A DNA stretch of 51,068 bases from an uncultured Eubacteriales bacterium (GTDB taxonomy: Bacteria; Bacillota; Clostridia; Peptostreptococcales; Anaerovoracaceae). Under the pieces are notes generated by a model, which was not told where the DNA came from, made no database searches, and was given only the letters and a program-made list of their open reading frames with translations. Shown here one piece after another: positions 6,017-51,007 of this stretch. The position numbers and the translations under genes were made by a program. The stretch lies in contig CADBKM010000010.1 in assembly GCA_902795265.1 (NCBI GenBank), positions 1 to 51,068 of the forward strand. Direction: 5' to 3'. Positions within the stretch are counted from its first letter, which is position 1; every line of letters starts with the position of its first letter.

Positions 6017-6108
6017 TTGTTTCCTCCTGTTTTCTTTACGATTTACGACGAATATAATACCACATTTTTTGCAACACTATACCCTTTTTACGATACTATT
6101 ATTATAGA

Positions 6109-6251
6109 AAGAGCGGTTTATATGCTCTGGCCGGGTAACTTGAGAACGCCGGCACTTAGCGACTGGCAAGCGTCAGCGCAGACAGAGCTTAGTACCGCTG
6201 CGTTCGAACGTTAGCGAGAGCGGGCCCGGGCAGAGCATATAAACCGCTCTT
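6109..6251. repeat. Palindromic intergenic element, copy 1 (143 bp)
   Basis: Perfect 21-bp inverted ends (6109-6129 and 6231-6251) extend through one mismatch into five more pairs (CCGGG, 6131-6135, with 6225-6229). The interior on the minus strand holds GCTCTCGC, then ACGCA and CGGTACTAAGCTC followed by GTCT and CGCT (6175-6203). The same ordered core is found in the element at 49656-49755, with 26 of 29 bases identical over the main block. It lies between divergent genes and, if transcription starts near the TACTATTATTAT stretch upstream, would form the 5' UTR of the sigma-factor gene. There is no T-run, so it is not a simple terminator. No open frame is present. Confidence 0.75.
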
Positions 6252-6274: not shown

Positions 6275-6784
6275 ATGGATGAAAGACTTGTACAGGAAGC
6301 AATAGCTGGCAATAAAGAGGCTTTCTGCAAACTTTACGGAAAATATAAGGACAGGCTTTACCGTTATGCTCTTTACAGGCTTAATGATCCTCACGATGCT
6401 GAAGATGCTGTGAGCGAATGCGTGGTCGCGGCGTGGCAGAGCATCGGCAGGCTCAGAAGTGCGGAAGCCTTCGGTTCGTGGATCTTCAGGATCCTGTCCA
6501 ATTGCTGTGCCTCGCAAATCAAAGAGAAGATAAACACCCGCGGCAATCTTGAACGGATATACGATGCCGGTCCGGGAAACAGCACATCCGACGCCCCTTC
6601 TCTCGCAACAGAGCTCAGCGAAGCTCTGCTTCAGTTAAAGGAAGACGAACGCAACATAGTGCTGCTCAGTATCGTAGCCGGCCTGAACAGTTCTGAGATA
6701 TCCGGTATTACCGGAATCTCTTCCGGAAGTGTCCGTTCCAAGCTGTCAAGAAGCCTCGCTAAAATGCGTGATTTTCTGTCATAA
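6275..6784 (+). CDS. RNA polymerase ECF-type sigma factor
   Basis: The 169-residue product has a sigma-70 region 2 (about residues 8-75: FCKLYGKYKDRLYRYALYRL, then DAEDAVSECVVAAWQSI) and a region 4 helix-turn-helix (about residues 110-165: LLQLKEDERNIVLLSIVAGL, SSEISGITGISSGSVRSKLS). It has no region 1 or 3, so it is an ECF (group 4) factor that directs RNA polymerase to a small regulon. CGGAG lies seven bases before the ATG. The downstream gene begins ten bases after its stop and encodes a membrane-anchored beta-propeller protein, which is likely to be its anti-sigma or sensor partner. A 143-bp palindromic element separates it from the divergent gene and may lie in its leader. Confidence 0.9.
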   Translation: MDERLVQEAIAGNKEAFCKLYGKYKDRLYRYALYRLNDPHDAEDAVSECVVAAWQSIGRLRSAEAFGSWIFRILSNCCASQIKEKINTRGNLERIYDAGPGNSTSDAPSLATELSEALLQLKEDERNIVLLSIVAGLNSSEISGITGISSGSVRSKLSRSLAKMRDFLS

Positions 6785-49655: not shown

Positions 49656-49755
49656 GCGGCTATAAAAGTCCTGCCGCGGAGCACGGCTCTCGCCTCGTCG
49701 CGGTTATACGCAACGGTACTAAGCTCAGTCTCCGCTTCACGACTTTTATAGCCGC
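49656..49755. repeat. Palindromic intergenic element, copy 2 (100 bp)
   Basis: GCGGCTATAAAAGTC (49656-49670) and its perfect inverse (49741-49755) bound the element. The plus-strand interior has GCTCTCGC, then ACGCA, CGGTACTAAGCTC, GTCT and CGCT (49708-49736) in the same order as on the minus strand of copy 1 at 6109-6251. The arms have different bases from copy 1 but the same pairing. An A7 run (49647-49653) lies just left, so on the minus strand the stem is followed by T7 and can end the prdD-prdE unit. It also lies 13 bases after the plus-strand cysteine-synthase-like gene. Confidence 0.75.
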
Positions 49756-49770
49756 TATTTGATTGCTTGT

Positions 49771-50250
49771 TTATTTAATTCCGCGCTCCTTCTTGAGCAT
49801 AGCGATCTTGAGCTTCTTAATGCACTCTTTTACATCGTCTTCGGTGTAGTTGTTCTCACCTACGATGTTGGACTCGATGCCCTCAGGATTCTTGTTGAAG
49901 TCTACAACGTTGTCGAGATACGGACTCTCAACTACGAAAGTTCCGGCTGTGCCGCTCCAGTTGAGTCCGGCAACAGGGATCCCTCTCTCACCTATCTCGT
50001 TTACGCAGTTTACGTAGTCTACGTCAAGGTTTCCCCATCCGTCTGTCTCAACGATGACTCCGTCAGGTCTGCAGCACTCAGCGACTACTGCGGCTGTTCT
50101 GGAGCATCTGATTTTCTCCTCGTTGCCCTCAGGGGAACCGAATACCAGAACTCCCATCAGGTCGATGCCAGGGTCCTCACCAAGCAGTCTGATCAGCGGA
50201 TCTCTGAAATGGTGAAGGCTTGTTTCTTTTGTCGAAGGACCTACTCCCAT
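49771..50250 (-). CDS. prdE: D-proline reductase family protein PrdE-like
   Basis: The 159-residue product starts MGVGPSTKETSLHHFRDPLI and has DGVIVETDGWGNLDVDYVNC and VVDFNKNPEGIESNIVGENN, matching PrdE and, more distantly, the beta part of PrdA. In PrdA and GrdE the VGPSTKE stretch follows the self-cleaved residue that becomes the pyruvoyl group; here it follows the initiator Met-Gly, so no pyruvoyl group is expected. PrdE is encoded with the proline reductase operon, but its exact role is unproven. It follows the prdD-like gene by 11 bases with GGAGG before the ATG. Confidence 0.82.
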   Translation of the reverse strand: MGVGPSTKETSLHHFRDPLIRLLGEDPGIDLMGVLVFGSPEGNEEKIRCSRTAAVVAECCRPDGVIVETDGWGNLDVDYVNCVNEIGERGIPVAGLNWSGTAGTFVVESPYLDNVVDFNKNPEGIESNIVGENNYTEDDVKECIKKLKIAMLKKERGIK

Positions 50251-50261
50251 ACTGCACCTCC

Positions 50262-51007
50262 TTAGTTCATCGCCTTGATAGCACCGTCTCTGAACTCGTT
50301 AGGAGTCAGCATGACAGGCATCGCGCCGTAATCGATAAGTGACTTTCCTCCTCAGGGAAGATCCATGTGTCGAGCATCGCGCCGTGAGCGACCATCTCCT
50401 TGATAACGAGTACTTTCTTCTGGCCCTTACGGATTCTGTCATAATACTCGTGTCTCTCGGTGCACTTGGTGCCCTCAAACTTCTTCAGCTGAGGTCTGAA
50501 CTCATTCATCCACTCCTCGACCATTCTGTACGCGTCGATTATCGCGTATCTTTCCTGGCCCATACCCTTCTTGAAGGTTATGTCGAATGAAATGATGTAG
50601 TCGTCATCAGCAGGTGTGCCGGCTCTGTTGAGGTAGAGCATATCCTTGAGGTTGCCCTCTGAGGAACCGAACTCGTGAGCCTGCTCTCCGTCGACGTCAA
50701 CGCCTGTAGGCATAACATATACACCTGTAATAGTGTGAGTGATGCCCTCTCCGCACTTTCCGAGCACCTTCACAGAAATCGGAATGATATCCATGATGGT
50801 GTTTGTATATCTGTCATGATCACCGGGTTTGATGATCTGGATGTCTATTTTCTCTATTACTTCGCTGTATTTAGCGGCCAGCGCGTCAAGACCGTCTTTC
50901 TTAATGGTCATCTTGCCGCCTGTAGTGATCTTGTTCTCATCTCCGAACTCGACATCATCCATGTGGAATGCCTTGATCACTAATCTTCTCAGTTCAATGT
51001 CTTCCAT
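50262..51007 (-). CDS. prdD: D-proline reductase family protein PrdD-like, frame broken near 3' end
   Basis: The uninterrupted frame from ATG at 51007 ends at 50306 and gives 233 residues with MEDIELRRLVIKAFHMDDVE, FGSSEGNLKDMLYLNRAG and VLVIKEMVAHGAMLDTWIFP, a PrdD-like protein. Just after IFPEE the sequence reads into a -1 frame that encodes KSLIDYGAMPVMLTPNEFRD then GAIKAMN and a stop at 50262, which is the C-terminal motif I expect for this family. One base missing in the GAGGAGGAAAG stretch (50344-50356 region) would restore a 248-residue protein that ends 11 bases before prdE. It may be a sequencing or assembly gap, a real mutation, or programmed frameshifting. Confidence 0.78.

What the first reader, a model, noticed from the sequence alone, without database searches (positions are those of the whole stretch)
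6109..6251. Palindromic element copy 1 shares an ordered core with a second element at 49656-49755
Seen in the sequence: two intergenic palindromes, 43 kb apart, carry in the same order GCTCTCGC, ACGCA, CGGTACTAAGCTC, GTCT and CGCT, on opposite window strands. Over the 29-base main block 26 bases agree. The inverted ends differ in sequence but keep perfect pairing (21 bp here and 15 bp there), so the pairing is conserved while bases change. That pattern is expected for an RNA structure or a small mobile palindrome moved by a transposase in trans. I do not know of a named family that matches.
Basis: seen in the sequence. Interest (0 to 1): 0.72.

Follow-up and report, generated by a model that had tools for sequence, protein, structure and literature searches.

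The report
Folded mobile repeat family in Clostridia
The two matching palindromes belong to a family of small DNA repeats, present in many copies in some gut bacteria, that share one folded shape with long variable arms and look like tiny mobile elements recognised by their shape rather than by their end sequences.

Summary
The core occurs 12 times in the window's genome (reversed control 0). A covariance model finds it in 18 of 18 same-genus genomes drawn, patchily in its family (21 of 119) and in two further families of the phylum. Covariation is strong. Neighbouring genes show no direction preference. Relatives without it lack core and arms. One copy is inverted in place in a relative. Window copy 1 is intact; copy 2 is a decayed copy lacking half its core. 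Best reading: a non-autonomous mobile element recognised as a folded single strand by an enzyme supplied in trans. The enzyme is unknown: Y1 transposase and reverse transcriptase were not detected in many carriers (drafts). A host-functional RNA is the main rival. Rfam has no match.

The parts
6109..6251 (+). Copy 1, intact element; proposed sense strand is the window + strand
   Evidence: R1 106.6 bits, R2 90.7 bits; sense strand
6109..6129 (+). Outer arm, 5' side (21 bp, perfect partner at 6231-6251)
   Evidence: read; arms of other copies compared
6231..6251 (+). Outer arm, 3' side
   Evidence: read
6131..6135 (+). P1 5' strand CCGGG (pairs 6225-6229)
   Evidence: helix 1 of A3: 4 of 4 counted pairs have changes on both sides
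6225..6229 (+). P1 3' strand
6136..6149 (+). P2 5' strands TAAC and GAACGC around a 4-nt internal loop (pair with 6210-6213 and 6200-6205)
   Evidence: helices 2 and 3
6150..6161 (+). Core 5' strand CGGCACTTAGCG with CTTAG (6155-6159)
6162..6186 (+). Apical hairpin, variable
6187..6197 (+).
6198..6199 (+). 2-nt bulge CT (CT in 39, TT in 5 of 44 rows of A4)
6200..6213 (+). P2 3' strands
6214..6221 (+). P3 hairpin GC-GAGA-GC (GNRA loop)
   Evidence: GNRA in 119 of 131 copies, 44 of 44 rows of A4
6275..6784 (+). Downstream sigma-70-type (ECF-like) factor gene; copy 1 lies upstream of it
   Evidence: Pfam Sigma70_r2 and r4_2 over cut-off, Sigma70_ECF just under its cut-off
49656..49755 (-). Copy 2: deleted remnant (3' half of the antisense-strand core missing), outer arms kept
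   Evidence: R2 15.3 bits; compare L142, L145, L139
49685..49694 (-). P3 hairpin of copy 2 (sense GGC-GAGA-GCC)
   Evidence: read

Best explanation
A family of small (roughly 130-220 nt with arms) non-autonomous mobile elements that are recognised as a folded single strand. Shown: many copies per genome, genome-specific subfamilies, patchy presence in three bacterial families, sites in relatives without core or arms, no preference for the direction of neighbouring genes, one covarying fold that looks natural on one strand. Inferred: an enzyme supplied in trans recognises the three-way junction (GNRA-capped P3, the T.T mismatch motif, the 2-nt bulge) on RNA, or on DNA made single-stranded during replication, and inserts the element between genes. 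The outer arms act as a clamp in which mainly pairing matters, so they drift with paired changes. After insertion the hairpin can invert between its arms or lose its interior, as in window copy 2, where the kept arms may serve the two convergent genes as a bidirectional terminator.
For: 12 exact cores and 12 model hits at 14 places of the genome. 18 of 18 same-genus genomes drawn, incl. own, against 0 of 12 genomes of other families in the order. 21 of 119 family genomes in 17 of 91 genera, 17 against 1 copies inside one genus. Relatives in two other families, 1-12 matches per genome. Covariation: four of five measures 0/500 shuffles in each of three alignments. GNRA loop on one strand in 119 of 131. 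Sites without the element. In-place inversion, L139 against L142 and L145. Arms: own right arm best partner in 48 of 73 copies of five genomes.
Against: No transposition between very close strains was seen. No mobilising enzyme found: genes between paired copies look ordinary, Y1 and RT were not detected in many carriers. At shared sites the core is often better conserved than flanking genes, which suits a host function. No end consensus and no clear target duplication. Arms fold equally on both strands (67 against 64). In 25 of 73 copies another copy's arm paired as well or better.
Confidence: 0.58

Rival explanations
1. A host-functional structured RNA or mRNA element (processing, stability or termination signal) that once spread and is now kept by selection at each site.
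For: At orthologous sites the core is 92-100% identical in groups G1, G3, H2, G33, locus2, H5 and L016/L041, where flanking DNA is 75-98% (two close pairs, L063/L080 and L016/L041, say little). Double changes in arms give Watson-Crick pairs in 17 of 24 cases. The truncated window copy 2 differs from intact copies at the same site at 7-8 of 54 bases, these among themselves at 1-2. The fold is RNA-like (GNRA).
Against: Both directions in tandem gene settings are equally common (33 and 33 copies). Often absent at the same site in relatives. In groups H1 and H4 the core (88%, 86%) is no better conserved than the flanks. A second repeat sits inside some copies.
Confidence: 0.25
2. A REP/REPIN-type repeat moved by a RAYT (Y1 HUH) transposase.
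For: Small intergenic palindromes thought to move as single strands are the closest known kind; closely spaced inverted pairs occur in family f37, like REP dimers. Y1 genes were found in 8 of 18 carriers searched.
Against: PF01797 not detected in 10 of 18 carriers searched, among them G153 (97% complete) and G067 (98%). No GTAG or CGTC tag at the ends. The unit is several times longer than a REP.
Confidence: 0.08
3. Outer arms are pre-existing target hairpins into whose loop a shorter element inserts.
For: At window locus 2 relatives without the element have a terminator with the same GCGGCTGT/ACAGCCGC stem as the arms (L143, L144). At locus 1 many relatives have the palindrome GAGCTC where the element sits. 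REPs inside palindromes are described (PMC3733652, passages).
Against: I saw no palindrome at the other sites without the element that I read. In G119 arms pair with their own partner (score 16.3) far better than with other copies' (6.2), with 27% arm identity between copies: many long unrelated palindromes, too many for chance targets. Arms at one site change together between species.
Confidence: 0.15
4. Chance resemblance of two unrelated terminators.
For: Both palindromes are intergenic; copy 2 lies between convergent genes.
Confidence: 0.01

Closest known systems
REP / REPIN sequences and RAYT transposases
   Same: Short dispersed intergenic palindromes, thought to be mobilised in trans; some lie inside other palindromes (PMC3733652, passages)
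   Different: REPs are 20-40 bp with GTAG or CGTC at one end (PMC3733652, abstract start in the listing and passages); here a three-way junction of over 100 nt, no such tag, no Y1 gene detected in 10 of 18 carriers
MITEs (BOX, RUP, QMITE and similar)
   Same: Non-autonomous, intergenic, structured transcripts expected
   Different: MITEs have terminal inverted repeats thought to derive from a parent insertion sequence (PMC10969869, passages); here the end sequences are unrelated between copies and only pairing is kept
attC recombination sites of integrons
   Same: Variable sequence, conserved fold on one strand, recognised by structure (recalled, not tested)
   Different: Scattered single copies, no cassette array noticed; R and L boxes not tested
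Double-hairpin elements of fungal mitochondria
   Same: Mobile hairpins whose stems change in a compensated way (recalled; the one paper search, did not list them)
   Different: Mitochondrial, different fold (recalled)
Rfam structured RNA families
   Same: GNRA loop, junction, covariation
   Different: No Rfam 15 family matched the copies in the window, or 11 loci with copies from other genomes, at gathering score; only weak hits in evalue mode around copy 1

Membership tests
REP/REPIN (RAYT-mobilised) | GTAG (or CGTC) tetranucleotide at one foot of the hairpin | tested here: not met
   At and around the arm ends of 74 copies no base exceeds half of the copies (the ends are estimated by pairing)
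REP/REPIN (RAYT-mobilised) | RAYT/Y1 gene in the carrying genome | tested here: not met
   PF01797 found in 8 of 18 carriers searched, not detected in 10; drafts, so no single absence is certain
REP/REPIN (RAYT-mobilised) | Y1 gene flanked by the repeat | not tested
   Y1 loci were fetched but not scanned with the models
MITE | Conserved terminal inverted repeats shared by all copies | tested here: not met
   Ungapped left-arm identity 0.25-0.31 between copies of one genome; no end consensus
MITE | Target site duplication | tested here: inconclusive
   Closest pairs with and without the element are too diverged
MITE | Dispersed, non-coding, presence/absence between relatives | tested here: met
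Structured RNA family of Rfam 15 | Covariance-model match at gathering score | tested here: not met
Structured RNA | Covariation of a defined fold | tested here: met
Structured RNA | Transcript | not testable with these tools
   No RNA data held
Retroelement-driven repeat | Reverse transcriptase in the carrying genome | tested here: not met
   PF00078 in 6 of 18 carriers searched, not detected in 12; drafts

The most novel reading that the evidence does not exclude
A bacterial mobile RNA: a compact structured RNA, built on a GNRA-capped three-way junction, that spreads through genomes of several families of the phylum as a folded molecule recognised by shape alone, with arms whose sequence is free but whose complementarity is renewed by the copying process, and that can flip in place.
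Probability: 0.2. Interest if true: 0.85.

Novelty: new variant of a known kind. Interest (0 to 1): 0.6.

Why it matters
Known small mobile repeats are defined by conserved end sequences or tags that a transposase reads. Here I found no shared end sequence; a fold is kept, across families of the phylum. If it moves, something reads shape, and that enzyme is unknown. If instead copies are kept for the host, it is an unnamed, dispersed structured RNA element. The covariance models built here make either testable. It also warns against taking paired sequence change as proof of a fixed regulatory RNA: these copies are dispersed, inserted and sometimes inverted.

Tried and rejected
Rejected: chance; a cis-regulatory RNA tied to one gene direction; strand preference following transcription (Fisher p 0.16); Y1 and RT as universal partners; a transposase between closely paired copies (the genes look like a transporter, a nucleosidase, a MATE and a CapA protein, named by eye, not by a search); phage or plasmid carriage (no blastn hit of copy 1; no exact match of a long core pattern in viral contigs; 11 matches of a 16-base pattern there, none matching R2). 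A 5S rRNA resemblance of the core was considered and dropped (no Rfam support).

Led nowhere: consensus at the arm ends. Apical loop tally: the expression parsed only 59 of 131 copies, so I rest nothing on it. The excess of A.C over G.T mismatches in arms (225 against 150, binomial p 1.3e-4) is not borne out by folding the arms (67 against 64); I use only the mid-domain result (minus strand more stable in 120 of 131), noting that the copies are homologous, not independent, and that random windows differ by sd 9 kcal/mol. Papers: eight searches listed no description of this family; most subscription journals and all supplements were out of reach, and the 250 palindromic candidate RNAs of PMC8040213 (passages and one section read) are tabulated only in a supplement, so prior listing there is not excluded.

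Full report
WHAT IS THERE. The core CGGTACTAAGCTC occurs twice exactly in the window and 12 times in the genome, with 0 hits for the reversed pattern. A longer pattern hits 82 stretches of genome contigs; the listed titles read Bacillota, Clostridiales, Clostridia, Mogibacterium or Lachnospiraceae, many from ruminant guts. One search found 96 distinct sequences around the core (printed output partly cut); one of them, on L039 minus, looks like a coding-region match and not a copy.

FAMILY AND SPREAD. Model R1 (50 copies, alignment A1) gives 12 hits in the genome; with the exact cores that makes 14 places. At E <= 0.001 it hits 18 of 18 same-genus genomes drawn, including the own one, two of them weakly (best E 4.3e-4 in G001, 1.9e-6 in G014), and 0 of 12 genomes of other families in the order; the genus holds at least 47 genomes, which were not all searched with the model. 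Within the family 21 of 119 genomes, 17 of 91 genera, at E <= 1e-9. In the class R1 hits 6 of 291 at E <= 1e-7: the own genome and five of another family, f37. Model R2 (44 copies, A4) hits 10 of 391 in the class (own plus nine of f37) and 5 of 398 in the phylum (own, three of f37, one of family f120), both at E <= 1e-6. Filters were strict and 10 to 31 candidates per genome were scored, so counts are lower bounds. The host names of f37 and f120 are not known to me. Rfam gave nothing at gathering score for this element, and only weak, unrelated hits around copy 1 at high E-value.

THE FOLD. Two subtypes were aligned in sense orientation: A3 (34 copies) and A2 (23 copies), chosen from the 131 copies held then that have both core halves. 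Structures were written by hand from the sequences, which favours them against slid controls. A3: 16 of 33 pairs show changes on both sides, score 0.187 against 0.077 in shuffles. A2: 22 of 37 pairs, 0.358 against 0.109. Across families (A4): 15 of 20, 0.244 against 0.095. In each, four of five measures were reached by 0 of 500 shuffles; the fifth, further pair types, by 9, 1 and 21. Against the model: in A3 pairs 31/74, 44/62 and 14/95 are often not standard (15, 31 and 24 of 34), and 31/74 would be a wobble only on the other strand. The fold is: outer arm helix; P1; on the 3' side of the junction P3, a 2-3-bp hairpin; P2, in subtype A with an internal loop; a 2-nt bulge (CT in 39, TT in 5 of 44 rows); an inner helix with a T.T mismatch in 44 of 44 rows, in a CTTAG context in 35 (5') and 34 (3') of 44; a variable apical hairpin.

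WHICH STRAND. In A4 44 of 44 rows are GNRA. The middle domain folds more stably on that strand in 120 of 131 copies, and the whole element does so on average in all classes of gene neighbourhood. GNRA suits RNA better than DNA (established knowledge), but single-stranded DNA is not excluded.

ARMS. Within a genome the arms of different copies are about as alike as random DNA (0.25-0.31 ungapped), yet they tend to pair with their own partner: own right arm is the best partner in 9/14, 11/17, 17/19, 7/13 and 4/10 copies of five genomes (the tested stretch excludes inner arm parts, and some copies hold deletions or nested inserts). Between orthologous copies (15 comparisons in 7 groups, not independent), of 362 arm pairs 288 are unchanged, 17 changed on both sides to another Watson-Crick pair, 7 changed on both sides without pairing, 22 broke on one side, 20 became wobble or A.C, 8 gapped. 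So compensation is real but incomplete.

INSERTION AND LATER CHANGE. In one search I read six sites by eye in relatives lacking the element: most have short spacers with neither core nor arms, for example beside genes that look like atpG and atpD (gene names are my reading). At site G5 three relatives have 207-262 bases of other sequence there, not examined, and at G3 one presumed empty relative (L080) turned out to hold the element. Copy 1 has no counterpart in any of the 29 relatives' fetched stretches; 24 of the 29 spacers could be read. At locus 2, 13 relatives could be read: G017 and G015 carry the full element in the same direction, G168 carries it inverted between the outer arms, G006 keeps only a remnant, nine lack it. 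The window copy there has lost the 3' half of the core, and its remaining 54 bases differ from those of the intact copies at 7-8 positions, these among themselves at 1-2. A second inverted case, L037 against L058, shares site and similar arms. At locus 2 several relatives have a terminator-like hairpin instead, L143 and L144 with the same GCGGCTGT stem and L140 nearly so; whether that is the ancestral target or a deletion remnant is open. The core of orthologous copies is 92-100% identical in seven of the ten groups that gave rows, with flanks 75-98% (flank values for the inverted L139 do not count); H10 is 90% against 79-81%; in H1 (88%) and H4 (86%) it is no better than the flanks, and those may be separate insertions.

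PLACE. Copy 1 lies upstream of a sigma-70-type, ECF-like factor gene; copy 2 between a PLP-dependent enzyme gene and a glycine-reductase-type gene.

PARTNER. PF01797 (Y1) was not detected in G000, G003, G011, G153, G119, G067, G099, G055, G129, G096 but was found in eight other carriers; PF00078 (RT) was not detected in G000, G003, G015, G153, G005, G119, G126, G067, G044, G079, G129, G141 but was found in six. All are drafts. Genes between paired copies look ordinary.

VERDICT. Real, more than chance, and not described in the sources I could search. The mechanism (shape-read, trans-mobilised element) is inferred at about 0.58; a host-functional RNA is the main rival.

Noticed in passing
L001, L007, L012, L037, L041, L043, L054, L061, L074, L078, L083, L092 (inside or beside copies of the element): A second hairpin repeat (about 75 nt, ACGGCGTTGCCGT-like hairpin with its own variable paired arms, one end CGATAAC) inserted into or next to copies of this element; possibly REP-like. 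In the window only 4 matches with 2 mismatches to its loop stem.
   Followed up: partly
L289, L290, L292, L293, L296 (family f37): Copies come as closely spaced inverted pairs, 53-98 bases apart, recalling REP dimers.
   Followed up: no
G161:C44:141-595: Three tandem same-direction matches to copy 1 within about 450 bases.
   Followed up: no
window 49771-51007, strand -: Two adjacent ORFs match different parts of glycine reductase component B (PF09338) in different frames: a frameshift, a processed form or an assembly error.
   Followed up: no
window about 6060-6110 and L108-L135: A sequence like TTGCAACACTT ... ACGATACTAT followed by GAGAGCTCTTAA upstream of the sigma-factor gene recurs in many relatives, perhaps an autoregulated ECF promoter.
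   Followed up: no
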